A stretch of 64,000 bases of DNA. Origin: Flavobacteriaceae bacterium. Lineage in GTDB: Bacteria > Bacteroidota > Bacteroidia > Flavobacteriales > Flavobacteriaceae. The translations under genes and the position numbers were made by a program. The notes under the pieces were generated by a model that was not told the origin of the DNA, searched no databases, and was given only the letters and a program-made list of their open reading frames with translations. The stretch spans positions 1-64,000 of the forward strand of contig CANHRI010000003.1 in the NCBI GenBank assembly GCA_947463515.1, read 5' to 3'. How positions within the stretch are numbered: position 1 is the stretch's first letter; the number at the start of each line of letters is the position of its first letter. Shown here piece by piece: positions 30,061-43,618 of this stretch.

Positions 30061-30104
30061 ATGATAAATATCATACCCTACGCCATGGCCACATCCTATC
30101 TTTG
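30061..30104 (+). promoter_or_regulatory. FNR-type box and -7 element upstream of hemN
   Basis: ATGATAAATATCAT (30061-30074) is an inverted repeat of the TGAT-N4-ATCA class bound by FNR-type regulators, centred at 30067.5. TATCTTTG at 30097-30104 is a consensus -7 element, and there is no TTG at -33. The box centre is 29.5 bp from the first T of the -7 element, placing it near -42, the class II activator position. Oxygen-independent haem synthesis genes are classical FNR targets. Confidence 0.75.
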
Positions 30105-30121
30105 AGGCAAATTCTCTAGCC

Positions 30122-31486
30122 ATGGCCACTTCTCTCATTCAAAAATACAACGTGCCGGGACCCCGATACACCAGTTATCCCACGGTTCCGTACTGGAATG
30201 ATGCGACTTTTAGCACCGAGGGATGGCTCCACACTTTGCTGCAAGCTTTTCACGAAACCAATGCGACGCAAGGCATAAGTCTCTATATTCATCTCCCCTT
30301 TTGCGAAAGTTTATGCACGTTTTGTGGCTGTCACAAACGCATTACCAAGCGGCATGAGGTAGAACACCCTTATATCGAGGCAGTATTGAAGGAATGGAAT
30401 TTATACTGTGAGTTATTGCCCAAGAAACCCCATATACGCGAAATCCATTTGGGCGGAGGCACGCCTACCTTTTTTTCTGCTGCTAATCTTAAGCGACTCA
30501 TTCACGGAATATTGAAGGAAGCCCATGTAGTTCCCGAACATGAATTTAGCTTCGAAGGGCATCCCAACAATACCACACGCGAACATTTACAGGTGTTGTA
30601 CGACCTAGGTTTTCGTCGTGTGAGTTTTGGCGTACAAGATTACTCGCCAACCGTTCAAAACGCCATTCATCGCGTGCAATCGTTTCATCAAGTGGCGAAA
30701 GTTACTTTTTGGGCACGGGAAATTGGCTATACATCCATCGGACATGATATCATCTTTGGGTTGCCGTTTCAAACCCTTGCCGACGTAGAAGACACTATCG
30801 ACAAAACCAAATCCCTACTCCCCGACCGCCTCGCTTTTTACAGTTATGCCCATGTACCGTGGATAAAAGGCAATGGCCAACGCGGATTTCAGGATCAAGA
30901 TGTACCGCGTGATGAGGTGAAGCGGCAATTGTATGAAGAAGGGAAAAAACGCTTGTTGGCACATCATTACCACGAAATTGGGATGGACCATTTTGCTCGA
31001 ACTACCGATTCGATGTACCATGCCTTTGAAAACGGCACCTTGCACCGGAACTTCATGGGATATACCGTGACACAAACCAAAGTAATGATCGGATTGGGCG
31101 TTTCGTCGATTGGCGACAGTTGGTATGGTTTTGCACAAAACGAAAAGGTCTTAGAAACCTACTATGCCCGCTTGGAGGCCAACGAATTCCCTGTGCTTCG
31201 GGGCCATCTTCTCACGGAGGAAGACCTGATTATCCGCCGTCATATTCTCAATTTAATGTGCCATTTTGAAACCCAATGGGAAACCGAAGACCTTTATTTC
31301 ATGGAAATTCCAAAGGTTTTGGCACAACTCCAAGAAATGGAGCACGACGGTTTGGTTATAATTGGACTGGATCACCTGGTTGTAACCGAAAAAGGCAAAC
31401 CCTTTATCCGTAACATTTGTATGGCGTTTGACTTGCATTTGCAACGTTCGGCTCCCCAAACACAGCTGTTTTCGATGACGGTTTAA
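30122..31486 (+). CDS. hemN: Oxygen-independent coproporphyrinogen III dehydrogenase
   Basis: 454 aa, radical-SAM enzyme of true HemN type. The N-terminal YNVPGPRYTSYP motif is diagnostic of HemN as opposed to HemW. HLPFCESLCTFCGCHKR carries CxxxCxxC for the [4Fe-4S] cluster plus the following Cys. GGGTPTFF, SFGVQDYSPTVQNAIHR and GHDIIFGLP follow. It decarboxylates coproporphyrinogen III to protoporphyrinogen IX without oxygen. The upstream FNR-type box indicates induction at low oxygen, in step with the cbb3 oxidase genes 3-10 kb away. Confidence 0.97.
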   Translation: MATSLIQKYNVPGPRYTSYPTVPYWNDATFSTEGWLHTLLQAFHETNATQGISLYIHLPFCESLCTFCGCHKRITKRHEVEHPYIEAVLKEWNLYCELLPKKPHIREIHLGGGTPTFFSAANLKRLIHGILKEAHVVPEHEFSFEGHPNNTTREHLQVLYDLGFRRVSFGVQDYSPTVQNAIHRVQSFHQVAKVTFWAREIGYTSIGHDIIFGLPFQTLADVEDTIDKTKSLLPDRLAFYSYAHVPWIKGNGQRGFQDQDVPRDEVKRQLYEEGKKRLLAHHYHEIGMDHFARTTDSMYHAFENGTLHRNFMGYTVTQTKVMIGLGVSSIGDSWYGFAQNEKVLETYYARLEANEFPVLRGHLLTEEDLIIRRHILNLMCHFETQWETEDLYFMEIPKVLAQLQEMEHDGLVIIGLDHLVVTEKGKPFIRNICMAFDLHLQRSAPQTQLFSMTV

Positions 31487-31493
31487 GGGGTTG

Positions 31494-31573
31494 TTTCAAG
31501 TTTTAAGTTTCAGGTTGGTTGCAGTGTGAGTTGTTGATTGGTGGAAAAGTGGAGCGGGTGGAAAAGTGTAGGG
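31494..31573. repeat. Low-complexity tail after hemN
   Basis: Directly after the hemN stop lies CAAGTTTTAAGTTTCAGGTT, and a shortened copy (CAAGTTTCAGGTTC) follows dapD at 50956. GTGGAAAAGTGGAGCGGGTG and GTGGAAAAGTGTAGGG are imperfect copies of one another. No coding signal was seen. Confidence 0.45.
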
Positions 31574-31691
31574 TAACTGCTCTTTCACCATGCGAAAGGA
31601 CTGACTTTATCGAATTTAATTTCGTCCAGCAGCAGTTATCGGGCCGCAAAGTCGGGAGACTGTTGCGGAGCAGAGTGCTACTTAAAACACT
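31574..31691. ncRNA. Strongly structured non-coding element (candidate)
   Basis: TAACTGCT (31574-31581) pairs with AGCAGTTA (31631-31638), enclosing CTTTC/GAAAG (31582-31586 with 31594-31598) and CGAA/TTCG (31611-31614 with 31621-31624). A second hairpin follows at 31644-31668: CCGCAA-AGTC, loop GGGA, GACT-G-TTGCGG. A third small one pairs AGTG (31674) with CACT (31688). The density of stems suggests a folded RNA or a mobile-repeat end rather than protein; the 71-aa frame here (31519-31734) has no recognisable features. It lies at the border of the AT-rich island. Direction of transcription is unknown. Confidence 0.4.
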
Positions 31692-31730
31692 TTGCGGAGC
31701 TGGGGCTGGGGTCTGTTATGTGCAGTATTT

Positions 31731-32141
31731 TTAAAGTTCACCTTTTTTAAACTTTTCAAGAAGATCATCCTCTACTGTTTTTGTGTATTCAAATTCATTT
31801 TTATAGATGTTATATTGAACATCTAATTCAACAATAATTTTTTTTACTTCTCCCTCGGTAAAATTTCCTTCTTTTATTTTGTCGCAAATTTCTTCACAAT
31901 ATTCTTTTTCAAGAATTTGCTTAATGGTATTATGAGTTTCTTTATAAGTAAGATTACTATTCAAAGGTTTATTTTCCCAAGTTTCGAATATATCACAATA
32001 GCAATCAATTAAAATATCATAATCGACCATTAGTTCTAAGTTTCTAAAATATTTAGAATTTAACTCTTCAATGTAGCTAGGTCTGATTGTTTCTTGTTTC
32101 GAGTTACTTTTCTTTTCGAATAGTTTCCTTAAAAAATACAT
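31731..32141 (-). CDS. Hypothetical protein, AT-rich accessory gene
   Basis: The frame opens at a GTG at 32189, but its first 16 codons lie in the GC-richer spacer; the ATG at 32141 gives MYFLRKLFEKKSN and about 136 aa. The protein is charged (Lys/Glu/Asp), with YKETHNTIKQILEKEYCEEICDKIKEG-like helical stretches, no signal peptide, no membrane segment and no motif I recognise. Codons are visibly more A/T-rich than in hemN or the cco genes. It lies downstream of the GIY-YIG-like gene on the same strand and ends beside the structured element. Function unknown; it could be a partner or immunity-type protein of its neighbour. Confidence 0.7.
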   Translation of the reverse strand: MYFLRKLFEKKSNSKQETIRPSYIEELNSKYFRNLELMVDYDILIDCYCDIFETWENKPLNSNLTYKETHNTIKQILEKEYCEEICDKIKEGNFTEGEVKKIIVELDVQYNIYKNEFEYTKTVEDDLLEKFKKGEL

Positions 32142-32310
32142 ATTTCTGGGTATTGCAGGATTTAAATATTGCCCGTAACGTTCTACCACTAGCCGACTGT
32201 GGCCGTCTTAGCGATACGATTATTTCTTACTAAGATAAATGTTTTTCGTTTAAAACAAACGCCAAACTTTCACTTGCCAACAATAGCGACTAGCTGCTTT
32301 TATAGGCAGG
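32142..32310 (-). other. Spacer of the accessory island with inverted end motif
   Basis: 169 bp without a gene, containing a GC-richer stretch at 32171-32215 (GCCCGTAACG ... CTTAGCGA). CTTAGCGA at 32207-32214 is the inverse of TCGCTAAG at 33320-33327 on the other side of the GIY-YIG-like gene, and the bases next to both are similar (ATACGATT versus the complement of AACGAT). CGTTA is also present near both. This resembles recombination-cassette borders but matches no site I can name. Confidence 0.4.
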
Positions 32311-33291
32311 CTAATACATATTAAATTCGTCGTCTGTTATTTCGGTTGACTTTAAATAATTATGCTTAGGAAAATATTTTACTATGTGTCTATATTTCGG
32401 TTCAATAGTTTGAGAATAAGTTCTACATAAGTTTGTCAAATCTGTTTCCACTATTATTGAAGAAAATTTTGATTTCTCAACAGCCTGATAATAAGAATGT
32501 GTTTTTTTTCCAAACGAACCTATAAAATCAACATTAAACTCTTTTGTGTCAAAATAATCAATAAGTGCGGCTTCAGTAACTTTTGTCGTTAACTCTTTTG
32601 TAGCATTCAAATCTTCAATATTTTTTCTCAACTCCTCCAAAATTTTTTTTCCTGAATTTTTGTATTCTGCAAACTCTTCAGTCATTGCCATTAAGTTGAT
32701 TTTTTTTACATAAGAACACAGAATAACATATACTTCCTTATCTAAATATTTTTGAGTGCATTTGAACAAAATCTTTTTAATTTTTTCATGATTGTTTATT
32801 CTTTTAACTGGGGATATTTTCTTGTCCATTTTTAATGATTTTCCAATATATAAGATTTGCAAATCATTAAAATTCATGTCAGTTTTATGCATAGAATACC
32901 TTAATGCATACAGCGCTTTTACTGCTATTTCATTGTCATTAACCAAATCAGGATGTTGTTTATCAAAAAAATATCCATTTTCATCTTTAATGTTAAATCT
33001 TGAATATGGAAATTCTGATTCGAGTCTAACAATACCTTTGACTTCACGCTTTAAAGGCAGTAAACCAATTACTTCATGAAAGTTATGTTCTTTTTGAATT
33101 TTAAATTTAAGCTTTACAAACTCACCATCAATTTCAAAATAATTTGGGTCGATTATAACTCTTGGTCTTATTCCAACCAAATAAATATTACAAGGTTCTT
33201 CCTCAGAAAAATGCTTGTTATAATTCACAAATCTGAATTCGTCTTCTTGAGTTTCCCAATAATTTTTAAGATAAATGTTGAAGTGTAGCAT
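32311..33291 (-). CDS. Putative GIY-YIG-type nuclease-like protein
   Basis: 326 aa, no signal peptide or membrane segment. From about residue 144 the order of motifs fits the GIY-YIG fold: LQILYIGKS (Y148-I-G), then R164 with NNH at 166-168, then TEAALIDYF (E230, the metal-binding Glu position) and EFN (N243). A clear GIY tripeptide before YIG is not visible, so the active site may be divergent. The N-terminal ~110 residues (MLHFNIYLKNYWETQEDEF...) match no family I know. The gene is AT-rich, flanked by inverted TCGCTAAG motifs and followed by a small unknown ORF. A role in DNA cleavage or phage/plasmid defence is inference. Confidence 0.6.
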   Translation of the reverse strand: MLHFNIYLKNYWETQEDEFRFVNYNKHFSEEEPCNIYLVGIRPRVIIDPNYFEIDGEFVKLKFKIQKEHNFHEVIGLLPLKREVKGIVRLESEFPYSRFNIKDENGYFFDKQHPDLVNDNEIAVKALYALRYSMHKTDMNFNDLQILYIGKSLKMDKKISPVKRINNHEKIKKILFKCTQKYLDKEVYVILCSYVKKINLMAMTEEFAEYKNSGKKILEELRKNIEDLNATKELTTKVTEAALIDYFDTKEFNVDFIGSFGKKTHSYYQAVEKSKFSSIIVETDLTNLCRTYSQTIEPKYRHIVKYFPKHNYLKSTEITDDEFNMY

Positions 33292-33580
33292 ATTTGTTGT
33301 CTAGCTTGACTATAACGATTCGCTAAGTTCAAATCCCTCGCAAATTAAAAAATATTCTACAATTCCCACTAGGGTTTTTCCTATTTTGGGGAGGGTTTTT
33401 TCCGTATAGTGACTTGTTATGAAATTTTAAATTATAAATTTTAAATTATAAATTGGTTTTCAGCTCACGTCATATGACTGATGACTGATGACTGATGACT
33501 GATGACTTACGACTGATGACTTACGACTTAAGACTAGCCATTCATTCAAAATTTAAAATAACACCATTTACAATAATAAA
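33292..33580. repeat. Intergenic stretch with AT-rich duplication and heptad repeats
   Basis: Contains TATAACGATTCGCTAAG (33311-33327), the right border motif of the island, and an AT-rich direct duplication near 33426-33454 (TTTTAAATTATAAA twice). A period-7 array lies at 33475-33533; on the minus strand it reads CAGTCAT repeated, degenerating to AAGTCGT. No gene was seen. Confidence 0.6.
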
Positions 33581-33581
33581 A

Positions 33582-33606
33582 AAAGCACGCCTCCCAGCGT
33601 GCTTTT
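33582..33606. terminator. Terminator of the cco operon (bidirectional)
   Basis: AAAGCACGC (33582-33590) pairs with GCGTGCTTT (33597-33605) around CTCCCA, with an A-tract before and T-tract after. It lies 19 bp past the DUF465 gene stop on the minus strand and ends the cytochrome oxidase gene set. Confidence 0.9.
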
Positions 33607-33624
33607 CATTCTAAACCCAAAAAA

Positions 33625-33855
33625 TTACTTTTGCAAGCGACGGTAAAGGTCGTCTTTCAAATGGAGTAATTTTGCTTTTAACACATGGGCGTGTTCGTCT
33701 GTAACGACTTCTTCGCTCGTGTTGATGCGGTGAATTTGATGCTCCAATTCGTCGTAAGCATCAAATAATTTGCGAAAATGAACATCGCTCACTTTCAACG
33801 CGTGAATGCGGTCGGCGAGTTCTGGAAATTCGTGTAGTAAACTATGTCGTTCCAT
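33625..33855 (-). CDS. DUF465 / YdcH-family small protein
   Basis: 76 aa. LLHEFPELADRIHALKVSDVHFRKLFDAYDELEHQI within residues 5-41 is the hallmark of the DUF465 (YdcH) family: a short antiparallel coiled coil with conserved HEFPE and LFDxYxxLxxxI. The protein is cytoplasmic and its function is unknown. It is last in the cbb3 oxidase gene run, 24 bp after the SafE-like gene, and is followed by a strong terminator, so it is probably on the same transcript. Confidence 0.9.
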   Translation of the reverse strand: MERHSLLHEFPELADRIHALKVSDVHFRKLFDAYDELEHQIHRINTSEEVVTDEHAHVLKAKLLHLKDDLYRRLQK

Positions 33856-33879
33856 ATTTATTGATTTTTAGTGTTAGAT

Positions 33880-34581
33880 TTAATGACAATTGGCTTGGGC
33901 TTGCACCCATAGCGAAGTAGTAGTGGGCGAAATATAAGGGATGCCCAATCCCATGCCGCGAACAATAAACAAGACGCCTATACCTACCGCCACAACGGGA
34001 ATGAGTTGCTGCAAACGCTGCCGCACGGGAACCGTAATCCACGATTGGGCATACACCACAAGGCTCATCAACGGCATTGTCCCCAAACCGTACAAAAGCA
34101 TGTAGCTCACACTTTCGGTAAGTCGCGGCATCGCCAAGGCGCCAAACAGAGCGGCATACACCATTCCACAGGGCAAAAATCCGTTCAAGAGTCCGATAGT
34201 AAATAACGCATCGGGTGATTTACGCTTAAACTGTTGTCCCAAATGACTTTTGACCACTGCAATGACTCGGTAAACGGGTTGTGAAAAATTGTATCGGGCA
34301 AAGACCTTTTCGGGAATCAATGCGATGGCAATCATTAAAATCCCAACCGCGATGGACAGTTGCTGTTGCATGCCGGCGAGATAAAACCCACGGCCAAGGA
34401 GTCCAAACACGAGTCCCAGCACCCCATACGCCGTCAATCGACCCAAGTGATACAACACGATTTGCAGGGCTTTAAGGGACGTATTTGCACGATCGACAGG
34501 CAAAAGCAAGGCTATGGGTCCACACATGCCGATGCAGTGTAAACTGCTGATGATTCCGAGAAATAAGGCCGCGATCAACAT
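33880..34581 (-). CDS. SafE/TauE-like membrane protein linked to cbb3 oxidase (DsbD-type domain)
   Basis: 233 aa with about six transmembrane helices. FLGIISSLHCIGMCGPIALL in TM1 and GLLNGFLPCGMVYAAL in TM4 carry paired cysteines, as in the DsbD/CcdA-like and 'sulfite exporter TauE/SafE' proteins found after ccoH in many cco operons. A CcoS/CcoI-related role in copper or thiol handling for oxidase assembly is the usual proposal, not experimental fact here. It follows ccoH after 3 bp, so it is certainly co-transcribed with it. Confidence 0.85.
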   Translation of the reverse strand: MLIAALFLGIISSLHCIGMCGPIALLLPVDRANTSLKALQIVLYHLGRLTAYGVLGLVFGLLGRGFYLAGMQQQLSIAVGILMIAIALIPEKVFARYNFSQPVYRVIAVVKSHLGQQFKRKSPDALFTIGLLNGFLPCGMVYAALFGALAMPRLTESVSYMLLYGLGTMPLMSLVVYAQSWITVPVRQRLQQLIPVVAVGIGVLFIVRGMGLGIPYISPTTTSLWVQAQANCH

Positions 34582-34584
34582 GGG

Positions 34585-35031
34585 TTAAAAAAATAAGGTT
34601 TGCTTGCTAATGTATCCTTTACCTTCGTAAGTCCAATGAATGGAAATGTCCCAACGACCGTCTGCCAAAGCGCTTTTAGGTATGAGCAAATGTGGACTGG
34701 ATAACGAAATCGGAATTTCGAAATCGAGCTTTTGACTAGACGGTCTGTAAAAGGACACTTTTCCACTAATTTTTGTACAATCAAACGAGGATGGAAAAGC
34801 CACCTCAATGCCCTCGGGCGTTTTGGTGCATACCACTTTCTCGTGAAGACCCAAAGCATTGTTCTCGCGTTCTAAATCCCGTTCGAAGGTCTGCTCTTTT
34901 AAATAATATTTTTCGACTACCAATTCGTTGTCGTATTTTGAATTGGACTGTACGCGAAATACAAAGAATAAGATAAAACTCATAAAGAGTATAAACGCGA
35001 TGACAATTCCGGTTCCCCAATTTATTTTCAT
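34585..35031 (-). CDS. ccoH: Cytochrome cbb3 assembly protein CcoH (FixH)
   Basis: 148 aa. One N-terminal membrane helix (GIVIAFILFMSFILFFVF, about residues 8-25), then a periplasmic beta-rich domain with DNELVVEKYYLKE and a C-terminal GRWDISIHWTYEGKGY, matching the FixH/CcoH family. It stabilises assembly of the cbb3 oxidase together with CcoI and CcoG. It is separated from ccoG by a 312-bp repeat-filled gap, unusually wide inside this operon, and followed at once by the SafE-like gene. Confidence 0.93.
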   Translation of the reverse strand: MKINWGTGIVIAFILFMSFILFFVFRVQSNSKYDNELVVEKYYLKEQTFERDLERENNALGLHEKVVCTKTPEGIEVAFPSSFDCTKISGKVSFYRPSSQKLDFEIPISLSSPHLLIPKSALADGRWDISIHWTYEGKGYISKQTLFF

Positions 35032-35040
35032 GGTGTTTTG

Positions 35041-35343
35041 TTTTTAGTGATTAGTGATTAGTGATTAGTGATTAGTGATTAGTGATTAGTGATTAGTGAT
35101 TAGTGATTAGTGACTGGTGACTAGTGATTAGTGACTGGTGACTAGTGACTAGTGACTGGTGACTAGTGACTGGTGACCTGCCTATGCCGGCAGGCAGGCT
35201 AGTGATTAGTTGATTAGTAGCCCCTTACTCCAAAGGGGAATACTTTCTAATAAAATGAACACTGATAATTCCATTCTGCTACTGCATTCTGATCACTGAT
35301 CACTGCTTACTGAATACTGAACACTGCTTACTGCGACTACCAA
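35041..35343. repeat. Period-7 tandem repeats with palindrome inside the cco operon
   Basis: 35045 to about 35170 is a tandem array of TAGTGAT drifting to TAGTGAC and TGGTGAC (plus-strand reading). At 35177-35194 CCTGCC-TATGCC-GGCAGG forms a GC-rich hairpin, with the half-site repeated once more. From about 35275 to the ccoG stop at 35344 the minus strand reads CAGTAAG/CAGTGTT/CAGTATT/CAGTGAT, the same heptad class in opposite orientation. No gene was seen. The insert separates ccoG from ccoH. Confidence 0.9.
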
Positions 35344-36768
35344 CTAATTAAACCTCCTCGGTCCGTTAAAATTCGCAGTGGTCGATTCAATCCGTTCATT
35401 TCCTTCATATACCTCGATTTTCAACACGAGTTTTTCATCGTGAAGCAAACGTTCGGGGATTTTGATAAACAAGGTCGCTTCGCCAAGCGCATCCGCGGGA
35501 ACTTTCAGTGAAGTTGCCCCCACCAGTTGAATGACGCCTTCGGAAGGGTCGACCAACTTGAATGTGACCTTTTTAAAATCGGTGGTGGTTTTGTTGACCA
35601 CTTTGCAATTGTAAATGTTGACAATCGTATCTTTTTCTTGCAAAAACAACTGCCCTGGTGCCGATAATATCGTAGCTTCAACTTGATTTCGCAAAAAAAG
35701 CATACCGATAAAAATCCCAGTGAGGATCGCCAATACCGCTGCATACCCTTTCATGCGAAGCGTAAACTTAAACGGCTCCTTTTTGTTGATCTCGTCTTCG
35801 CTGGCATAGCGAATCAAACCTTTGGGCAATCCAACACGCTCCATAATCGTATCGCATTCATCGATACAAGCGGTGCAATTCACACATTCGAGCTGAGTTC
35901 CGTTGCGAATATCAATGCCCGTTGGACACACATGGATACAGGCTTTACAATCGATACAATCGCCTTTACCCACCGCTTCACGGTCTTCGTCTTTGACATA
36001 TTTGGCACGTCCCGATGCCCCTTCGCCCCGAACGTGATCGTAGGCTACATTGATTGATTTATTGTCCAACAACACGCCTTGCAAACGTCCATACGGACAA
36101 GCGATAATGCATACCTGCTCGCGAAACCAAGCGTAGATAAAATAAAATACCGCCGAGAAAATCAATACCGCAATAAGCGTTGACGTATTGTGTGTGGGAC
36201 CTTCTTTGATAAAAGTGATAACAGTATCACTGCCTTTCAAATAGGCCAAAAACACATTGGCAATGGCAAATGAAATCAGGTAAAACACGATCCATTTCGT
36301 AACGCGTTTACGTATTTTCTCGCCATCCCAATCTTGCTTAGCCAGACGAATTTGCTGGTTACGGTCGTCTTCAATCCAATATTCAATACGGCGAAACACC
36401 ATTTCCATAAAAATCGTTTGGGGACAAAACCATCCGCAAAAAATTCGTCCAAAGGCCACCGTAAAGAGGGCCAATCCCACTACCCCAATGATCATTGAAA
36501 TCACAAACAGGTGAAAGTCTTGGGGCCAAAACGGGAATCCGAAAATATTGAAACGACGTTCAAGAACGTTAAAGAGCAAAAATTGGTGGCCGTTGATTTT
36601 TACAAACGGCGCTCCGAAGAGAAACACCAACAAGAAATAACTTACTATTTTTCTGCGGTCGTAATACCGTCCCACAGGTTTTTTGGGAAAAATAAAGGCG
36701 CGTTTTCCTTTTTGATCGATAGTAGCTATCGTATCGCGGAAACTGTCGTCATGCAACGGACTGGCCAT
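35344..36768 (-). CDS. ccoG: CcoG/RdxA-type cytochrome oxidase assembly ferredoxin
   Basis: 474 aa. Several N-terminal membrane helices with FGRIFCGWFCPQTIFME (CGWxCP motif) are followed by a polyferredoxin region with CIDCKACIHVCPTGIDI and CVNCTACIDECDTIM, two [4Fe-4S] binding sets. One more helix precedes a C-terminal Ig-like periplasmic domain. CcoG is a cupric reductase supplying Cu(I) for the cbb3 active site. It lies 59 bp downstream of ccoP, with a perfect 7-bp hairpin between, and its stop codon directly abuts heptad repeats. Confidence 0.95.
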   Translation of the reverse strand: MASPLHDDSFRDTIATIDQKGKRAFIFPKKPVGRYYDRRKIVSYFLLVFLFGAPFVKINGHQFLLFNVLERRFNIFGFPFWPQDFHLFVISMIIGVVGLALFTVAFGRIFCGWFCPQTIFMEMVFRRIEYWIEDDRNQQIRLAKQDWDGEKIRKRVTKWIVFYLISFAIANVFLAYLKGSDTVITFIKEGPTHNTSTLIAVLIFSAVFYFIYAWFREQVCIIACPYGRLQGVLLDNKSINVAYDHVRGEGASGRAKYVKDEDREAVGKGDCIDCKACIHVCPTGIDIRNGTQLECVNCTACIDECDTIMERVGLPKGLIRYASEDEINKKEPFKFTLRMKGYAAVLAILTGIFIGMLFLRNQVEATILSAPGQLFLQEKDTIVNIYNCKVVNKTTTDFKKVTFKLVDPSEGVIQLVGATSLKVPADALGEATLFIKIPERLLHDEKLVLKIEVYEGNERIESTTANFNGPRRFN

Positions 36769-36795
36769 GATAATTAGGGTTTGGGTTTAGCAATT

Positions 36796-36819
36796 GGGTC
36801 CCGAGTCGCCTTGGGACCC
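36796..36819 (-). other. Intercistronic hairpin between ccoP and ccoG
   Basis: GGGTCCC (36796-36802) and GGGACCC (36813-36819) form a perfect GC-rich 7-bp stem with a 10-nt loop. There is no T-run, so it is not a standard terminator. It may mark RNA processing or lower downstream expression. Confidence 0.55.
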
Positions 36820-36827
36820 GTGAATGA

Positions 36828-37763
36828 TTATTTTGCGCTAGGAATCGAATCCGCAGGCTTGGAAGCATCGGCTGTGGGAGCAGCATCGTCTTTCCTTACA
36901 TCGCCTTCGGCTGGCTTGGCACCCGCAGGTTTTGTCCCTTGCAAACTCCAAACATAGCTAGCCACTTTTTGAACGTCTTTGGCATCCAAGGTTTTCCCCC
37001 AAGCGGCCATCGTGGGATTACGAGGGCTACCGTCGTGAATGACTTTGAATACATTCTTGATACCGCCGCCGTTTAACCAATGGGCATCGGCAAGATTGGG
37101 TCCTACCAACCCACCGCCTTCAGCTCCGTGACAGGCAGCGCACACATTTTTATAAATTTCTTGCCCTTTCGACAAACTGGCAGGATCGGTTAAAGCGGTA
37201 ACTTGATCAAGTGAAATCGTCTCTTTGGGACTGTTGCCTTTGAATTTCAACATTTCCTCTTCGGCGAGAGCCACTTCTGTTTCAAACTCTTGTGCTTGGT
37301 TTTCACCGCCAAAGAAGTGGTAACGCACCAGGTAAATACCCGCAAAAATGATGGTCACATAAAAAAGGTACACCCACCACGGAGGCAATACATTATCAAG
37401 TTCGCGAATGCCATCGTAGTCGTGATCGAGCATTACATCGGCTTCTTGCTCCACTGCTTTCGAACGGGTGAGTTTCGACATCCAATGTTGGTACCATTGG
37501 CTATCCACAAATGAAACGGATTGCGCCTCCTCGAGCTGTTTCTTTTGCTCTTCGGTCAATAAATGATAGGTGACTTTATCTACGGCACTTACTACAATTT
37601 CAATGGCGACCAAAAGGAAGAGAAAAACCGCCAAAAACAAGGCTACCATGGGATACTTCACAAAAGCCGGTCTATCGCCCGAATCGATGAAATACTCCAA
37701 TGCGACCAGCACAATGGCAAAGAGTAAGGGCACGCGTACGTAGGATGGAAATAAATTTTTCAT
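36828..37763 (-). CDS. ccoP: cbb3 cytochrome c oxidase subunit III (CcoP), single haem c
   Basis: 311 aa. Two N-terminal membrane helices are followed by a linker with DGIRELDNVLPPWWVYLFYV, the conserved CcoP anchor motif preceding another helix. A cytochrome c domain with CAACHG and distal Met region (NPTMAAWG) follows, then an Ala/Pro/Lys-rich tail. Only one CxxCH is present, whereas proteobacterial CcoP has two. It passes electrons from the donor to the CcoO haem. The start overlaps the ccoQ stop by one base (TAATG). Confidence 0.95.
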   Translation of the reverse strand: MKNLFPSYVRVPLLFAIVLVALEYFIDSGDRPAFVKYPMVALFLAVFLFLLVAIEIVVSAVDKVTYHLLTEEQKKQLEEAQSVSFVDSQWYQHWMSKLTRSKAVEQEADVMLDHDYDGIRELDNVLPPWWVYLFYVTIIFAGIYLVRYHFFGGENQAQEFETEVALAEEEMLKFKGNSPKETISLDQVTALTDPASLSKGQEIYKNVCAACHGAEGGGLVGPNLADAHWLNGGGIKNVFKVIHDGSPRNPTMAAWGKTLDAKDVQKVASYVWSLQGTKPAGAKPAEGDVRKDDAAPTADASKPADSIPSAK

Positions 37764-37960
37764 TAGAAATTATGTTTTTCAGTTAGTGATTCGTCATCGT
37801 TTAAAGGGAGATTGCTCACGGTATTCAGAGTTTCCTTGCTGTAGGTCATGGCCCAAACGGTAAACAACACAAAGGCAGTAAAGAAAATCGAAAGGGAAAT
37901 AATCGGATAAATCTCTACCCCAGCAATCGTTTCTAAATTATGTTTTACAAACTTCAACAT
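37763..37960 (-). CDS. ccoQ: CcoQ-like small subunit of cbb3 oxidase
   Basis: 65 aa with one membrane helix (IYPIISLSIFFTAFVLFTVWAM, about 17-38) and a charged C-terminal tail (LPLNDDESLTEKHNF). It is placed between ccoNO and ccoP like CcoQ/FixQ proteins, which stabilise the oxidase complex. Sequence conservation in CcoQ is low, so the call relies on size, topology and position. Five bases separate it from ccoNO. Confidence 0.9.
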   Translation of the reverse strand: MLKFVKHNLETIAGVEIYPIISLSIFFTAFVLFTVWAMTYSKETLNTVSNLPLNDDESLTEKHNF

Positions 37961-37965
37961 GTTAA

Positions 37966-40143
37966 TTAAGGTTTAGGTTTAGCTGCGGTATCCGTGCCTA
38001 AGCGTTGTAAATAAGCAATCAAGGCAATAATTTCACGATCCTTCAGCGGCACATTGGTTTCTGCTCCAAATGATTTTTGGATTTGCGAATCCTTCATCAA
38101 ACTCGCTTCAATCTTTTTGGCTTGCGCTTCCATGTGTTGGGGCGCATTAGCAATGTCTTCTGGTGAATACGGTACTCCTAAAGAAACCATGGCTTCCATT
38201 TTTTTCTGGGTCAAATGGGTATCCAATTTGTCGTGAATCAACCATTGGTAACGCGGCATAATCGAACCCGAAGAAATACTTTGGGGATCATACATGTGAT
38301 TAAAATGCCACACATCGGGACGTCCACCGTTAAATGGTTTACCCGTTACGCCCTCGCGGTGCAAATCGGGACCTGTACGTTTTGAACCCCATAGGAAGGG
38401 ATGATCGTACACATATTCACCCGATTTGGAGTAATCGCCATAACGTTCAACTTCGGAGCGGAACGGACGAATTAATTGCGAGTGACAGCTCACACAACCT
38501 TCACGGATGTACAAATCACGCCCTTCTAATTCCAACGGTGTATAGGGTTTTACCGCAGCTATAGTAGGAATATTAGACTCTACGAAAATGGTGGGTAAAA
38601 TTTGCACCACACCTCCAATTAAAATGGCCAAAGTGGTGTAGAGTGAAAATTTAACCGGTTTGCGTTCCAACCAAGCGTGCCAGCCTTCACCTTTCAATCG
38701 GTTGGGACTGATAGGCGCTAAGACAGGAGCTTCTGCAAAATCGTCGGCTACTGCTGCGCCTTTACGAACGGTCATCACAATGTTGTACACCAACACAAAT
38801 ACCCCAATTAAATATAAAGTTCCCCCAATGGCGCGCATCCAATACATCGGCATCAATTGCGTTACTGTTTCTAGAAAGTTTCCATATTGTAAGGCACTCC
38901 CATCGGGTTTAAATTGTTTCCACAAAGACGCTTGGGTGAATCCAGAAACGTACATCGGTAGAGCATAGAAAATAATTCCTAAAGTGCCAATCCAAAAGTG
39001 GAAATTGGCCAATTTTTCAGAGAATAACTTGGTTTTGGTCAAACGAGGAACCAACCAATAGAACATCCCGAAAGACAAGAATCCGTTCCAAGCCAAAGCA
39101 CCCACGTGAACGTGTGCAATGATCCAATCAGTAAAGTGGGCAATCGCATTTACATTTTTCAAGGAAAGCATCGGACCCTCAAAGGTAGCCATCCCGTAGC
39201 CCGTAATTGCTACCACGAAGAATTTCAACACCGCATCGGTACGTACTTTATCCCAAACACCACGAAGGGTCAATAATCCGTTAATCATCCCTCCCCAAGA
39301 AGGGGCAATTAACATTACCGAGAATACTACCCCAAGGTTTTGCGCCCAATCGGGTAACGCAGAATACAACAAATGGTGGGGTCCTGCCCAGATGTAAATG
39401 AAAATCAACGACCAGAAGTGGATAATTGACAAACGGTAGGAATATACAGGACGGTTGGCCGCTTTCGGAACGAAATAGTACATCATTCCCAAAAACGGTG
39501 TGGTCAAGAAAAACGCCACCGCATTGTGACCGTACCACCATTGTACCAAGGCATCTTGTACCCCAGCGTAGACGGAATACGATTTTAAACCGGCAACGGG
39601 TAATTCTAAACTGTTGAAAATGTGAAGCACCGCTACCGTAACGAAAGTGGCGATATAAAACCAAATGGCAACATAAATGTGACGCTCTCTTCGTTTGATA
39701 ATGGTCCCAATCATATTGATTCCAAAAACCACCCAAATCAGCGCAATGGCAATATCAATGGGCCATTCCAACTCGGCATATTCTTTAGATGTTGTGTATC
39801 CTAACGGTAAAGTGATGGCAGCCGCTACGATAATCAATTGCCAGCCCCAAAAATGAATTTTGCTTAATACATCGCTAAACATGCGGGCTTTGAGCAAGCG
39901 TTGCATCGAGTAATACACCCCTGCAAACATGGCATTGCCCACAAAGGCAAAAATCACCGCATTGGTATGCAACGGGCGAAGTCTACCAAAACTCAAAAAA
40001 GAGACACCACTCGTAAGGTTAGGGAACATAAAGAGGAACGCCAGAAGCAATCCGACGAGCATCCCTACCACCCCAAAAACGATACTGGCATAGATGAAAT
40101 TTCGAACAATCTTGTTGTCGTAATGAAATTGTTGCATTTCCAT
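37966..40143 (-). CDS. ccoN: Fused cbb3 oxidase subunits I and II (CcoN-CcoO)
   Basis: 725 aa. Residues 1 to about 480 are CcoN: 12 or more helices with haem-copper ligands, for example LRPLHTNAVIFAFVGN, WWYGHNAVAFFLTTP and WIIAHVHVGALAWNG. Residues from about 510 are CcoO: a membrane anchor, then VESNIPTIAAVKPYTPLE, GCVSCHSQLIRPF (haem c CxxCH), WGSKRTGPDL and a distal Met segment (GSIMPRY). This N-O fusion is usual in Bacteroidota. The enzyme reduces oxygen to water at very low oxygen tension and pumps protons. Confidence 0.97.
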   Translation of the reverse strand: MEMQQFHYDNKIVRNFIYASIVFGVVGMLVGLLLAFLFMFPNLTSGVSFLSFGRLRPLHTNAVIFAFVGNAMFAGVYYSMQRLLKARMFSDVLSKIHFWGWQLIIVAAAITLPLGYTTSKEYAELEWPIDIAIALIWVVFGINMIGTIIKRRERHIYVAIWFYIATFVTVAVLHIFNSLELPVAGLKSYSVYAGVQDALVQWWYGHNAVAFFLTTPFLGMMYYFVPKAANRPVYSYRLSIIHFWSLIFIYIWAGPHHLLYSALPDWAQNLGVVFSVMLIAPSWGGMINGLLTLRGVWDKVRTDAVLKFFVVAITGYGMATFEGPMLSLKNVNAIAHFTDWIIAHVHVGALAWNGFLSFGMFYWLVPRLTKTKLFSEKLANFHFWIGTLGIIFYALPMYVSGFTQASLWKQFKPDGSALQYGNFLETVTQLMPMYWMRAIGGTLYLIGVFVLVYNIVMTVRKGAAVADDFAEAPVLAPISPNRLKGEGWHAWLERKPVKFSLYTTLAILIGGVVQILPTIFVESNIPTIAAVKPYTPLELEGRDLYIREGCVSCHSQLIRPFRSEVERYGDYSKSGEYVYDHPFLWGSKRTGPDLHREGVTGKPFNGGRPDVWHFNHMYDPQSISSGSIMPRYQWLIHDKLDTHLTQKKMEAMVSLGVPYSPEDIANAPQHMEAQAKKIEASLMKDSQIQKSFGAETNVPLKDREIIALIAYLQRLGTDTAAKPKP

Positions 40144-40145
40144 AA

Positions 40146-40340
40146 TTATTGTTTTTCTTCGGTTATATTTAATTGATTTTTGTTTTTCGTTGTGTTGATA
40201 ATTTCATCGTCAAATAACATACGTACCGACGGTGTATAATCGTCGTCGTATTGACCGGATTGTACCGCTTTTATAAAGGCCACCATGAAAAAAACGGCCA
40301 CGACGATACTGATACTGATTAAAAAATAAATGACACTCAT
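40146..40340 (-). CDS. ccoS: cbb3 oxidase maturation protein CcoS
   Basis: 64 aa with one N-terminal helix (SVIYFLISISIVVAVFFMVAF, within residues 2-22) and the conserved AVQSGQYDD motif followed by acidic residues. CcoS is needed to insert redox cofactors into CcoN. It is the first gene of the minus-strand run ccoS-NO-Q-P-G, 2 bp before ccoNO, and is preceded by its own FNR-type promoter. Confidence 0.93.
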   Translation of the reverse strand: MSVIYFLISISIVVAVFFMVAFIKAVQSGQYDDDYTPSVRMLFDDEIINTTKNKNQLNITEEKQ

Positions 40341-40358
40341 ACCTTAAATTTGTGTTAA

Positions 40359-40402
40359 CAAAGTTAGATTCACCCCTTGGCTTAAAACATGACATTTATC
40401 AT
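40359..40402 (-). promoter_or_regulatory. FNR-type box and -7 element for the ccoS-NO-Q-P operon
   Basis: On the minus strand ATGATAAATGTCAT (40402-40389, centre 40395.5) is a near-perfect inverted repeat, and TAACTTTG (40366-40359) is a consensus -7 element. The distance from centre to the first T is 29.5 bp, identical to hemN. The box overlaps the ccoI stop codon (40399-40401), so the operon can be induced independently of ccoI. The leader to the ccoS ATG is about 12-18 nt. Confidence 0.78.
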
Positions 40403-42813
40403 TCCGCTGCATTTTTCACTGTTTTTTTCGCCTCAAAAATTCGTCCACTGGCATACGCATTGCTCATCAAGGTGACAAAACTCACAATGGTAATCGTACT
40501 CAAAGGCATAATAATCGCCGCCACGATGGGCAACAAATTTCCAGTTACCGCATAGGTCAATCCCACGACATTGTATAAGAGTGAAATCGTAAAACTCATA
40601 TAAATGATCTTCATCGCATTGCGGGAGTACTGCATGAAATAGCCGATTTTCGAAAACTGAGACGCATCCAATATCCCATCGCAGGCGGGAGAAAATACAT
40701 TCACATTCTCTGAAATCGAAATTCCCACATTGCTTTGGGCCAAAGCACCTGCATCGTTCAGCCCATCCCCTACCATCATGACGTTTTTGCCCTCTTGTTG
40801 CAAAGCCTCGATGTAGGCCAACTTCGCTTCGGGTTTTTGGTTGAAAACCAACGTAGTACCCGCGGGCAACATTTTCTCTAAAATCCTTCGCTCCCCATCG
40901 TTATCGCCCGAAAGCACAACCAAATTATAGGATGCACTCAACCGTTCAAACAACGCCTCCAAGCCTTCGCGGTATTGGTTGTTGAACACATAACTGCCTT
41001 TGTAAGCGCCATCAATTTCAACATGCACTTTGGTTTTCTTGTGGGTATTTTCACTGAGATGCTGTAAAAACTGAGACGAACCCAATTTGACCGAGTGACC
41101 TTCCACCGTAGCAAATACCCCTTTGCCCGTCACTTCTTCAAAATGGGTGACCGTGGCTTTCTCTTGAGGCGGTAAATACTCGTAAAGCCTGCGACTTAAG
41201 GGGTGATTGGAGCCGCGAAGAGTATTTTTCAACAACTGAAGTTCGTGCGCGTCGAGTGCGCTACCTTCATACGTTATCGCTGTTTTCTTGTTGGTGGTAA
41301 TGGTTCCCGTTTTATCAAAAACAATTGTATCGACTTGGGCCATTTGTTCAATCACCTGGGCATTTTTTAAGTACAACTGCTGTCTTCCCAAAATCCGCAA
41401 AACATTGCCCAACGTAAAAGGAGCCGTCAACGCCAAGGCACAAGGACAGGCTACGATTAAAATGGCGGTGAACACATTGAAAGCGGTATCGGTATCGATG
41501 AAAATCCAATAGCCAAAAGACACCAGCGCCAATAATAATAAGGCAGGCGTAAAATAATGGCTGATGCGGTCGGTAATGTTTTTGTGTTTGGATTGTAATT
41601 TCTTTTGAAACACATCATTGCTCCACAATTGGGTGAGGTAACTTTGGGAAACCGAGAACAAGACTTCCATTTCGATGACTTTGCCCAGCTGCTTGCCGCC
41701 AGCGTAGATTTTATCGCCCGACTTTTTTTCAATAGGAACCGCCTCTCCCGTGACAAAACTGTAATCGATAGCCGCTTTTTCTGAAATCAAAATACCATCT
41801 ACGGGAATCAACTCTTGGTTGCGAATCAACAGGCGATCGCCCTTTTCAATGGCATAGACTTGTACGGGTTCTTCGGTGCCGTTGGGACTAATTTTGGTCA
41901 CCGCAATGGGGAAATAAGACTTATAATCGCGTTCAAAAGAGAGGAAGTTGTAGGTTTTCTGCTGAAACAATTTCCCCAACAACATGAAGAAAATCAGACC
42001 GCACATGCTGTCAAAAAAACCTTGGCCATAATCCATCACGATATCGACCGTACTGCGCACAAACATGACAATAATACCCAGTGCAATCGGGATTTCGATA
42101 TTGAGCATTTTGGCACGGATACTTTTCCACGCTGAAACATAGTAACCACTGGCTGAATACAACAAAGGAGGCAACGACAAGAAGAAAATCAACCACCGAA
42201 AAAAGCCGCGGTACTGATTGATCCAAAATTCCTCGACTTCAAAATACTCGGGAAACGACAAAAGCATAATGTTGCCAAATGAGAAAAAGGCCACCCCGAT
42301 TTTGTAGATCAACGAGCGGTCGATTTTGTGTTTTTCCCCTTCGTAATTTTCCAAACTGATGTAGGGTTCATAGCCGATCGAACATAGTAATTCGACCAAG
42401 GCTTTGAGAGAAATCTGTTGGGGATCAAAGGAGATGCGAACTTTTTTGGCGGGAAAGTTTACCTGCGCCCTGCCAATACCCGGGTGTAACTTGTGTAGAT
42501 TTTCCAAAATCCAAATACACGAGCTGCAGTGAATATGCGGTAGGTACAGTGAAACAATATGGGTTGAAGCTTCTTCAAATTCGAGTAATTTGCTGACGAT
42601 GGTGGCGTCGGTTAAAAAATCATATTTTCCATTAATGTCCGCGGGAGTGGCCCCGGGTGCGGCTTGAAAATCATAGTAGCACGTGAGATCGTTTTGACGA
42701 AAGATTTCGTAAACCGTTTTACAACCGGTGCAACAGAATTCTTTTTCCTCAAAAACAAGTACGTCCGTATCTTGAATTGTTAAGCCACAATGATAACAGT
42801 GCATTGTGTCCAT
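40399..42813 (-). CDS. ccoI: Copper-translocating P-type ATPase CcoI (FixI)
   Basis: About 804 aa. The N-terminus has Cys motifs HCYHCGL and FCCTGCKTV, then a heavy-metal-associated domain with CSSCIW, eight helices with the CPC copper channel (VACPCALAL), DKTGTIT phosphorylation site and GDGLNDAGAL hinge. It moves copper to the cbb3 oxidase assembly pathway. The frame begins at a TTG at 42840, but this base lies inside the predicted -7 element, so translation must start at the ATG at 42813 (MDTMHCYHC) or at 42804. It is the first gene of the cco locus on this strand. Confidence 0.94.
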   Translation of the reverse strand: MDTMHCYHCGLTIQDTDVLVFEEKEFCCTGCKTVYEIFRQNDLTCYYDFQAAPGATPADINGKYDFLTDATIVSKLLEFEEASTHIVSLYLPHIHCSSCIWILENLHKLHPGIGRAQVNFPAKKVRISFDPQQISLKALVELLCSIGYEPYISLENYEGEKHKIDRSLIYKIGVAFFSFGNIMLLSFPEYFEVEEFWINQYRGFFRWLIFFLSLPPLLYSASGYYVSAWKSIRAKMLNIEIPIALGIIVMFVRSTVDIVMDYGQGFFDSMCGLIFFMLLGKLFQQKTYNFLSFERDYKSYFPIAVTKISPNGTEEPVQVYAIEKGDRLLIRNQELIPVDGILISEKAAIDYSFVTGEAVPIEKKSGDKIYAGGKQLGKVIEMEVLFSVSQSYLTQLWSNDVFQKKLQSKHKNITDRISHYFTPALLLLALVSFGYWIFIDTDTAFNVFTAILIVACPCALALTAPFTLGNVLRILGRQQLYLKNAQVIEQMAQVDTIVFDKTGTITTNKKTAITYEGSALDAHELQLLKNTLRGSNHPLSRRLYEYLPPQEKATVTHFEEVTGKGVFATVEGHSVKLGSSQFLQHLSENTHKKTKVHVEIDGAYKGSYVFNNQYREGLEALFERLSASYNLVVLSGDNDGERRILEKMLPAGTTLVFNQKPEAKLAYIEALQQEGKNVMMVGDGLNDAGALAQSNVGISISENVNVFSPACDGILDASQFSKIGYFMQYSRNAMKIIYMSFTISLLYNVVGLTYAVTGNLLPIVAAIIMPLSTITIVSFVTLMSNAYASGRIFEAKKTVKNAAE

Positions 42814-42837
42814 AATTTGCTCATTTTTTACCTGTAA

Positions 42838-42902
42838 CAAAGGTCACACAACCGCATTTTGTAAAATATGACATTTGTCATGCGAATATTTTTCTACATT
42901 TG
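42838..42902. promoter_or_regulatory. Divergent ccoI / crp-fnr control region with shared FNR-type box
   Basis: ATGACATTTGTCAT (42868-42881, centre 42874.5) is an inverted repeat with two central bases. Towards ccoI the element GACCTTTG (minus, 42845-42838) begins 29.5 bp from the centre, the activating distance. Towards the regulator gene TACATTTG (42895-42902) begins 20.5 bp from the centre, so the box covers the -33 region, the position expected for repression. The arrangement suggests ccoI activation with negative autoregulation. Confidence 0.72.
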
Positions 42903-42937: not shown

Positions 42938-43618
42938 ATGGGGAAATGTGAACAGTGCATTGTTCGGGAATTCAGCTCTCTGAAAGCACTTACCAAAGAC
43001 GAACTCCTGCACATGGCGGAGTGTAAAGCGTCGTACACCATTAAGAAAGGTGAAGCAATTTTTGAAGAAGGTGAAAGCATCAATGGGGTCTATTGCGTCA
43101 AAGAAGGCATCTGTAAAATGTCGAAACTGAGTTCGAACGGGAAAGACCAGATTGTCAAACTCGTCAAACCGGGCGAACTCCTCGGACAGCGTTCGTTAAT
43201 CAGTGAAGAACCCGCCAATTTAAGTGCCGTAGCGCTCGAAGATATGCAAGTTTGTTTCATCCCAAAATCGGAAATCATGTCGTTTTTCAACAAAAACAAC
43301 AATTTCTCGATGAACATGATGCGTACCATTTGTGGCGACCTGCGCGACGCCGACGACCATATGGTGACCCTAGCGCAAAAAACAGTCAAAGAACGCTTGG
43401 CCGAAACCTTGTTGTACCTCGAGGACAGTTTTGGCAAAAACGACGACGGCACCTTGCGTATTCAGCTCTCCCGTGAAGAACTCGCGGGCATGATTGGCAC
43501 AGCTACTGAGAGTTGCATACGCCTGTTATCAGAACTCAACAAGTTAGGGTATATCGAATTAATCGGTAAAAAAATAGCCTTGAAAGAACGCCAAAAACTC
43601 AAGCGAATGGCCGAGTAA
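42938..43618 (+). CDS. Crp/Fnr family transcriptional regulator
   Basis: 226 aa. A cyclic-nucleotide-binding-like beta roll spans about 20-140 (GEAIFEEGESINGVYCVKEG, PGELLGQRSLI), a dimer helix about 140-165, and a C-terminal HTH has LSREELAGMIGTATESCIRLLSELNKLGYIE. In the recognition helix Glu and Arg are spaced as in FNR/CRP, which contact the GA of TGA half-sites. Cysteines C4 and C7 (KCEQC) and C29 could hold a redox cofactor, but spacing differs from E. coli FNR. Divergent from ccoI, it is the natural regulator of the three boxes in this window. The ligand is unknown. Confidence 0.92.
   Translation: MGKCEQCIVREFSSLKALTKDELLHMAECKASYTIKKGEAIFEEGESINGVYCVKEGICKMSKLSSNGKDQIVKLVKPGELLGQRSLISEEPANLSAVALEDMQVCFIPKSEIMSFFNKNNNFSMNMMRTICGDLRDADDHMVTLAQKTVKERLAETLLYLEDSFGKNDDGTLRIQLSREELAGMIGTATESCIRLLSELNKLGYIELIGKKIALKERQKLKRMAE

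What the first reader, a model, noticed from the sequence alone, without database searches (positions are those of the whole stretch)
30061..42902. Three FNR-type palindromes with identical 29.5-bp spacing to the -7 element define a low-oxygen regulon
The sequence shows ATGATAAATATCAT before hemN, ATGATAAATGTCAT (minus) before ccoS and ATGACATTTGTCAT before ccoI: consensus ATGAYAnnTRTCAT. In all three the box centre lies exactly 29.5 bp from the first base of a TAnnTTTG-type element (TATCTTTG, TAACTTTG, GACCTTTG). All three lack a proper -33 TTG. FNR/CRP class II activators bind near -41.5, which this spacing reproduces. Identical geometry at three separate loci is very unlikely by chance. A Crp/Fnr gene lies in the locus and its recognition helix keeps the Glu and Arg that read TGA half-sites. 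The inference is one redox or oxygen regulon covering respiration and haem synthesis.
Basis: partly seen in the sequence, partly recalled or inferred. Interest (0 to 1): 0.82.

Follow-up and report, generated by a model that had tools for sequence, protein, structure and literature searches.

The report
Flavobacterial low-oxygen switch and its promoters
Three identical-geometry DNA switches in this Flavobacterium genome are real and conserved in many relatives, and they most likely turn on high-affinity respiration and haem synthesis at low oxygen through an FNR-like protein whose cysteine layout differs from the textbook one.

Summary
The three palindromes are the only exact ATGAYAnnTRTCAT matches in the 2.45-Mb genome, each 29.5 bp from the -7 element. 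Published Flavobacterium johnsoniae promoter numbering puts their centres at -41.5, the class II activator position. Among promoters with a box, TTTG sits at the exact offset in 85 of 85 ccoS, 51 of 54 hemN and 78 of 100 ccoI cases, 98 of 100 within 1 bp. In 149 family genomes box+27 bp+TTTG occurs 588 times, its reversed control 22 times. Sites elsewhere precede nirK, nrfH, pflB and pta. The box also overlaps the fnr promoter, suggesting autoregulation. The regulator is FNR-like, not canonical: Cys20, Cys23 and Cys122 equivalents are kept, Cys29 is replaced, and an invariant C53 lies elsewhere; 19 of 20 non-family homologues examined show the same four cysteines. Genomes with a receiver-CRP protein but no such FNR also keep box promoters (30 of 30); with neither regulator, 12 of 30 have any and 2 of 30 have cbb3 oxidase. 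Binding, activation and oxygen sensing are inferred, not shown.

The parts
30061..30074 (.). box 1, ATGATAAATATCAT, upstream of hemN
   Evidence: hemN box in 47 of 65 FNR-positive genomes examined, window included
30097..30104 (+). -7 element TATCTTTG of the hemN promoter, 29.5 bp from the box centre
   Evidence: TTTG at this offset in 51 of 54 hemN boxes
30122..31486 (+). hemN, oxygen-independent coproporphyrinogen III oxidase
   Evidence: NCBIfam TIGR00538 407.7 bits, over cut-off
40389..40402 (.). box 2, ATGATAAATGTCAT on the minus strand, upstream of ccoS; overlaps the ccoI stop codon
   Evidence: found in 67 of 75 named Flavobacterium loci with enough flank
40359..40366 (-). -7 element TAACTTTG of the ccoS promoter
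   Evidence: TTTG at this offset in 85 of 85 ccoS boxes
40146..40340 (-). ccoS, 64 aa, first gene behind box 2
   Evidence: Pfam FixS 8.4e-20; coordinates
37966..40143 (-). ccoNO fusion, cbb3 oxidase subunits I/II
   Evidence: NCBIfam NF011053 1316.5 bits, over cut-off
36828..37763 (-). ccoP, cbb3 oxidase subunit III
   Evidence: Pfam FixP_N and Cytochrome_CBB3; NCBIfam ccoP 107.8 bits is below its cut-off 179.95
35344..36768 (-). ccoG
   Evidence: NCBIfam TIGR02745 414.8 bits, over cut-off
34585..35031 (-). fixH/ccoH-like
   Evidence: Pfam FixH 1.7e-23
33880..34581 (-). DsbD_2 family membrane protein, possibly cbb3 assembly
   Evidence: Pfam PF13386 6.7e-48; role by context
42868..42881 (.). 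box 3, ATGACATTTGTCAT, between divergent ccoI and fnr
   Evidence: present in 72 of 80 named Flavobacterium loci
42838..42845 (-). -7-type element GACCTTTG of the ccoI promoter
   Evidence: TTTG at the exact offset in 78 of 100, within 1 bp in 98 of 100
40399..42840 (-). ccoI, heavy-metal/copper P-type ATPase (longest ORF; likely ATG start at 42813)
   Evidence: Pfam ATPase-cat_bd, HMA, E1-E2_ATPase; NCBIfam copper and heavy-metal ATPase models match below cut-off; name ccoI by context
42895..42902 (+). -7 element TACATTTG facing fnr; box centre 20.5 bp upstream, so the box overlaps this promoter
   Evidence: toward fnr TTTG at +33.5 in 0 of 100
42938..43618 (+). fnr-like Crp/Fnr regulator, 226 aa, with C4, C7, C53, C106
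   Evidence: Pfam cNMP_binding and HTH_Crp_2; translation; cysteines

Best explanation
An FNR-like dimer, encoded divergently from ccoI, binds ATGAYAnnTRTCAT palindromes centred at -41.5 and activates the main RNA polymerase in the class II manner at promoters with a TAnnTTTG-type -7 element and little or no -33 element. In this genome it drives hemN, the ccoS-ccoNO-ccoP-ccoG operon and ccoI, and probably an MBL/rhodanese gene on another contig; the same box overlaps the fnr promoter and probably limits its own synthesis. The likely signal is low oxygen, read by a [4Fe-4S] cluster held by C4, C7, C53 and C106. Shown: box, spacing, conservation, the genes behind the sites, cysteine conservation. 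Inferred: binding, activation, operon extent, cluster, oxygen.
For: Only 3 exact full boxes in the genome, all in this cluster. TTTG at +33.5 from the box centre: ccoS 85 of 85, hemN 51 of 54, ccoI 78 of 100. Of 141 box-TTTG pairs with gaps 14-40 in 8 of 14 genomes (those listed completely), 47 have gap 27; the other gaps average 3.6, maximum 10. 588 sites against 22 control in 149 family genomes. -7 numbering T-12 to G-5 (PMC6847099, passages) gives -41.5. Sites in FNR-positive genomes precede nirK, nrfH, pflB, pta, hemA and a PEPCK gene. E191 and R195 invariant in 41 of 41. C4, C7, C53, C106 present in 41 of 41 family proteins, 80 of 80 Flavobacterium and 19 of 20 non-family homologues examined.
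Against: 18 of 65 FNR-positive genomes have no strict hemN box within 300 bp; 8 of 80 named Flavobacterium loci have no strict divergent box and 8 of 75 no strict ccoS box. FNR-negative genomes with a receiver-CRP protein keep box promoters (30 of 30, mean 3.8), and 12 of 30 genomes with neither regulator still have at least one, up to 5, so the box alone does not identify the regulator. The own genome holds two further Crp/Fnr proteins. Outside the family a strict box lies within 400 bp before the gene in 1 of 20 loci. The Cys29 position of FNR is not cysteine, and the one homologue fetched from another family of the same order, L345, has none of the four cysteines. No expression, binding or spectroscopic data.
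Confidence: 0.84

Rival explanations
1. The boxes are used in this genome mainly by another Crp/Fnr paralogue: the receiver-CRP protein on contig 43 or the 208-aa Crp/Fnr on contig 59, with the cluster fnr acting only locally.
For: Receiver-CRP proteins of relatives carry a recognition helix (ATESLIRTLS in L055 and L366; AIES or ALES variants in others) close to that of FNR (TATESAIRVLS in L055). FNR-negative receiver-CRP-positive genomes have mean 3.8 box promoters, against 0.7 with neither. All 7 FNR-negative genomes with a hemN box have the receiver-CRP.
Against: 16 of 19 FNR-negative genomes without a hemN box have the receiver-CRP too. This genome's receiver-CRP is only 32% identical to the query of that class, its helix reads PETVSR, and the alignment shows Glu where the others have Asp in the receiver. 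FNR-positive genomes without the receiver-CRP class have mean 4.3 box promoters. fnr is physically linked to box 3.
Confidence: 0.1
2. The regulator is the cluster protein, but the signal is nitric oxide, persulfide or general thiol redox rather than oxygen, so this is a redox or NO regulon.
For: One own-genome site lies before an MBL/rhodanese gene (a link to persulfides is recalled, not tested); nirK and nrfH are among the genes behind sites; the cysteine set is not the classical FNR set.
Against: hemN and cbb3 oxidase sites are the ones found conserved most widely and fit low oxygen; pflB and pta are anaerobic functions; three of four FNR ligand positions are cysteine.
Confidence: 0.12
3. 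The three boxes and their spacing are a chance resemblance.
For: One-mismatch sites are about as frequent as the control in this genome.
Against: Conservation at separate promoters in relatives and a sharp peak at one spacing.
Confidence: 0.01

Closest known systems
FNR of Escherichia coli and Aliivibrio fischeri (solved structures 5cvr, 5e44, 9qly and others)
   Same: Crp/Fnr fold; cysteines at the positions of Cys20, Cys23 and Cys122 (alignment to A. fischeri chains; E. coli numbering recalled); class II centre at -41.5 and respiration, fermentation and denitrification targets (recalled for FNR)
   Different: Cys29 position is Ser or Asn here and N, S, T or G in the non-family homologues with the motif; C53 where FNR has Ala; box ATGAYAnnTRTCAT rather than TTGATnnnnATCAA (recalled); partner polymerase reads TAnnTTTG; NCBIfam Fnr model 88.7 bits, cut-off 228
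FixK2 of Bradyrhizobium and the FixLJ-FixK cascade
   Same: control of cbb3 oxidase and hemN (recalled); FixK2 is reported as induced by FixLJ and negatively auto-repressed (start of abstract of PMC9104804); some Flavobacteriaceae carry a PAS kinase plus receiver-CRP beside fnr or together
   Different: FixK model 72.1 bits against cut-off 300; receiver and CRP parts are one protein in the Flavobacteriaceae version
Porphyromonas gingivalis Crp/Fnr protein 2gau
   Same: best sequence and fold match among solved structures, also Bacteroidota
   Different: its alignment begins at profile position 35, after C4 and C7, and it has Tyr and Leu at the C53 and C106 positions
Flavobacteriales Crp/Fnr homologues called MalR-like in an anammox bioreactor study (PMC8510549, passages)
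   Same: Crp/Fnr proteins of the same order
   Different: that study predicted carbon sensing; whether its protein is an orthologue of this one was not tested

Membership tests
FNR (oxygen-sensing, canonical) | cNMP-binding fold plus Crp-type HTH | tested here: met
   Pfam cNMP_binding 1.7e-22 and HTH_Crp_2 3.3e-16; Foldseek matches to 5e44 and 9qly
FNR (oxygen-sensing, canonical) | four ligand cysteines at the Cys20, Cys23, Cys29 and Cys122 positions | tested here: not met
   three of four; the Cys29 position is Ser in this protein; C53 elsewhere is invariant
FNR (oxygen-sensing, canonical) | curated Fnr model score | tested here: not met
   NF008365 88.7 bits, cut-off 228, though it is the best-scoring NCBIfam model
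FNR (oxygen-sensing, canonical) | recognition-helix Glu and Arg for TGA half-sites | tested here: met
   E191 and R195 invariant in 41 of 41
FNR (oxygen-sensing, canonical) | class II sites centred at -41.5 | tested here: met
   with -7 numbering from PMC6847099; transcript starts in this organism not mapped
FNR (oxygen-sensing, canonical) | oxygen-labile [4Fe-4S] cluster and low-oxygen activation | not testable with these tools
   needs purified protein and cells
FixK | curated FixK model score | tested here: not met
   NF050806 72.1 bits, cut-off 300
CRP (cAMP-activated) | curated CRP model score | tested here: not met
   NF008732 54.1 bits, cut-off 266
CRP (cAMP-activated) | cAMP binding | not tested
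   no assay; sequence determinants were not examined

The most novel reading that the evidence does not exclude
Bacteroidota carry a distinct FNR lineage in which the third N-terminal cluster ligand has moved: C53, on a beta-roll strand, replaces FNR Cys29, giving a C4-C7-C53-C106 [4Fe-4S] oxygen sensor. In Flavobacteriaceae this sensor shares one promoter code (box at -41.5, TAnnTTTG) with a two-component receiver-CRP protein, and lineages can exchange the direct oxygen sensor for the kinase-fed one while the target promoters stay in place.
Probability: 0.5. Interest if true: 0.75.

Novelty: new variant of a known kind. Interest (0 to 1): 0.6.

Why it matters
Bacteroidota use an unusual sigma factor and promoter, and ten searches of the held open-access library listed no paper that I recognised as describing an oxygen regulon of Flavobacteriaceae (subscription papers not covered, long hit lists seen only in part). 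A short, scannable promoter code would predict which flavobacteria switch on cbb3 oxidase, nitrite reduction and fermentation at low oxygen. A relocated Fe-S ligand would give a natural variant for asking what sets FNR oxygen sensitivity.

Tried and rejected
Loosening the full box by one mismatch gives about background, so the 12-bp core TGAYAnnTRTCA plus spacing was used instead; the core alone occurs 11 times in the own genome, reversed control 3. Of the two further own-genome sites with box+27+TTTG, C30:3239-3281 has no ORF of 90 aa or more starting within 200 bp and was set aside as chance; C59:4813-4855 was kept. Rfam gave no hit in the window. The Thioredoxin_9, YceI, FadL-type and other sites were not pursued. 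C29 and C59 were considered as cluster ligands and rejected because 30 of 80 Flavobacterium orthologues lack both and 3 lack C59 only. The AlphaFold model (mean pLDDT 82) came without coordinates, so distances between the cysteines could not be measured. The co-occurrence test is confounded: many genomes with neither regulator are small or incomplete (sizes), and species share ancestry; 12 of 30 of them have at least one site, G048, G138 and G147 having 3 to 5. The FNR-positive class is 89 of 149 genomes (window genome included), by a match of about 175 bits or more; the partial matches G020 and G043 were counted as negative. The receiver-CRP class is E below 1e-100, 61 genomes; five weaker matches, the own genome among them, were counted as negative. 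Both lists were typed by hand. hemN upstream regions were examined for 91 of the 102 genomes with hemN over cut-off. Cysteines were read in 40 of 88 FNR-positive relatives, plus named Flavobacterium and phylum samples; the 20 non-family loci (19 genomes) were chosen mostly from the best hits, so weaker homologues were not sampled. In one search, boxes outside the set distance ranges or too near a contig end were dropped. Target annotation used 30 loci that the tool chose (31 sites; 5 without an ORF of 90 aa within 200 bp) plus own-genome and hand-picked sites, so it is not a census. Non-family loci: 13 of 20 have no TGA-N6-TCA within 400 bp before the gene; L335, L336 and L346 have one with the 27-bp geometry. 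A first look for the MBL/rhodanese starts missed most loci through too strict a pattern and was replaced.
Full report
The observation. The pattern ATGAYANNTRTCAT occurs three times in the window, at 30061, 40389 and 42868, against a shuffle mean of 0.03, and exactly three times in the whole 2.45-Mb genome, which is 99.81% complete. All three lie in one cluster: hemN, the cbb3 oxidase genes with ccoS and ccoI, and a Crp/Fnr gene. Random triples of window positions share any common TTTG offset from 20 to 45 in 114 of 400,000 trials. The window belongs to Flavobacterium: the Crp/Fnr protein is 98% identical to a Flavobacterium MAG and 93% to F. stagni.

Conservation. I fetched the fnr region of 40 relatives from the family, 80 named loci, nearly all Flavobacterium, and hemN upstream regions of 90 family genomes. 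In the family set, 28 of 40 relatives have the strict box just upstream of fnr. Four more (L055, L059, L067, L079) have it about 3.4 kb upstream, beyond inserted genes, in a context resembling the ccoI promoter. In the named set the divergent box is in 72 of 80, of which 52 have TTTG at the exact offset toward ccoI, and the ccoS box is in 67 of 75 with enough flank, all 67 with TTTG at the exact offset. With the window counted, hemN has the box within 300 bp in 47 of 65 FNR-positive genomes, 45 of them with TTTG at the exact offset, and in 7 of 26 FNR-negative ones, 6 with TTTG. Pooled, with a near-duplicate of the window (L217) and five loci with inserted genes left out, TTTG is at +33.5 from the box centre in 85 of 85 ccoS, 51 of 54 hemN and 78 of 100 ccoI boxes; 17 further ccoI boxes have it 1 bp further and 3 have it 1 bp nearer. 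These sequences are related and the genus is densely sampled, so the counts are not independent events; the bases between box and -7 element vary much more.

Spacing test. In 14 genomes I searched the core box with TTTG at any gap from 14 to 40 bp. Across 149 family genomes the box+27+TTTG pattern occurs 588 times, the reversed control 22 times. A study of F. johnsoniae numbers the -7 element T-12, A-11, T-8, T-7, T-6, G-5, with starts 4-5 nt beyond it (PMC6847099, passages read). With that numbering the box centre is at -41.5, the class II position. TTG is found in the expected -33 zone in 7 of 100 ccoI, 10 of 85 ccoS and 8 of 54 hemN promoters, but the same passages say the -33 motif is weak in F. 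johnsoniae generally, so its absence is not diagnostic.

The fnr side. Toward fnr, TTTG stands at +33.5 in 0 of 100 loci; a -7-like element instead starts near +15.5 or +16.5 in a good part of them (TTTG at +19.5 in 20 and at +20.5 in 19 of 100), and at 20.5 in the window. The box would then lie between about -27 and -33 of an inferred fnr start, where a bound protein would block polymerase. This suggests negative autoregulation (inference).

Genes behind other sites. In the own genome the core box plus spacing gives five sites: the three in the window, one on contig 59 whose TAACTTTG lies 17 bp before an MBL/rhodanese gene, and one on contig 30 without an ORF of 90 aa starting within 200 bp. 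For the MBL/rhodanese gene I examined 30 loci (29 of 30 Flavobacterium loci, own one included, one dropped for short flank, and L205 of genome G026): 9 carry the strict box, 6 with TTTG and 3 with TTTA at the same offset; the more distant Flavobacterium copies mostly lack it. In other family genomes, sites precede hemN and ccoI-like genes and, by profile match, pflB (G125), pta (G125), a PEPCK gene (G119), nrfH (G145), copper nitrite reductase (G110), hemA (G125) and a thioredoxin-reductase-like flavoprotein (G119); a cytochrome gene two genes before nosZ and a universal stress protein come from G101, which lacks this FNR and has the receiver-CRP. G110, G125 and some others carry both regulators. 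Many of these are functions of low-oxygen and anaerobic life. The sites are a mixture of tool-chosen and hand-picked ones, and some lie 80 to 167 bp before the gene.

The regulator. The 226-aa protein has the cNMP-binding and Crp HTH domains, and its predicted model matches solved Crp/Fnr proteins, 2gau best and A. fischeri FNR among them. E191 and R195 of the recognition helix are invariant in 41 of 41. Alignment to A. fischeri FNR places C4, C7 and C106 on the FNR ligand positions Cys20, Cys23 and Cys122 (E. coli numbering recalled), shows Asn in the family profile (Ser in this protein) at the Cys29 position, and puts C53 where FNR has Ala. C4, C7, C53 and C106 are present in 41 of 41 family proteins read and 80 of 80 named loci, and in 19 of 20 non-family loci; in L335 C4 lies one residue before the start codon first chosen, and the exception, L345 from another family of the same order, has none of the four. 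C29 and C59 are not kept: 30 of 80 named loci lack both. The simplest reading is a [4Fe-4S] cluster held by C4, C7, C53 and C106. Because one defining feature of FNR (Cys29) was tested and not met, and the curated Fnr cut-off is not reached, I call it FNR-like rather than FNR.

A second regulator for the same box. In five family loci (L055, L059, L067, L070, L079) a PAS-type histidine kinase, a receiver-CRP protein and a universal stress protein lie directly upstream of fnr (domains confirmed by profile on the equivalent genes of L366). The receiver-CRP recognition helix is close to that of FNR, and the protein lacks the FNR cysteines. Cross-tabulating 149 genomes by FNR, receiver-CRP and box promoters: both present, n=31, mean 6.5, 31 of 31 with at least one; FNR only, n=58, mean 4.3, 55 of 58; receiver-CRP only, n=30, mean 3.8, 30 of 30; neither, n=30, mean 0.7, 12 of 30. 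cbb3 oxidase over cut-off is found in 30 of 31, 55 of 58, 28 of 30 and 2 of 30 respectively. Genome size, completeness and ancestry confound this, and 16 of 19 FNR-negative genomes without a hemN box have the receiver-CRP too. It still suggests that two regulators share one promoter code. The own genome's receiver-CRP is a distant form (32% identity to the query) with Glu where the others have Asp in the receiver.

Literature. Ten searches of the open-access library listed no paper that I recognised as describing this regulon or a Bacteroidota FNR with this cysteine set (one search found none, searches showed only part of their hits). I saw search listings, passages of PMC8510549 and PMC6847099 and abstract starts, among them that of PMC9104804. 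Subscription journals are not covered, so absence from print is not claimed.

Verdict. The finding is real and its interpretation holds in the main. The geometry is that of a classical class II FNR site; what differs is the host polymerase, the cysteine layout of the sensor, and the apparent sharing of the box with a receiver-CRP protein.

Noticed in passing
L348:1878-4834 (own genome contig 59): MBL/rhodanese gene with a box+27+TAACTTTG promoter, beside TauE/SafE and a 208-aa Crp/Fnr gene; a probable fourth target in this genome.
   Followed up: partly
L347:3870-4922 (own genome contig 43): Receiver-CRP protein in which the alignment shows Glu where related receivers have Asp (ILCEVFMSE), so it may no longer be phosphorylated.
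   Followed up: no
L055, L059, L067, L070, L079; L366:1640-6992: PAS histidine kinase, receiver-CRP and universal stress protein genes beside fnr or together, a possible FixL-FixJ-FixK-like system with receiver and CRP fused.
   Followed up: partly
L209, L355, L360, L361: Box sites 160-167 bp before nrfH or nrfH-like genes, a longer leader than at hemN or ccoS (L361 by profile, the others by resemblance; L209 and L361 are one site).
   Followed up: no
L350, L352, L353: Box promoter before a similar 205-aa protein in three genera (L350 is Thioredoxin_9 by Pfam), role unknown.
   Followed up: no
window 30030-30055: Terminator-like hairpin with T run at the end of the DUF349 gene, directly before box 1.
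   Followed up: no
window 32311-33291: 325-aa ORF downstream of the cco genes with no Pfam or NCBIfam match.
   Followed up: no
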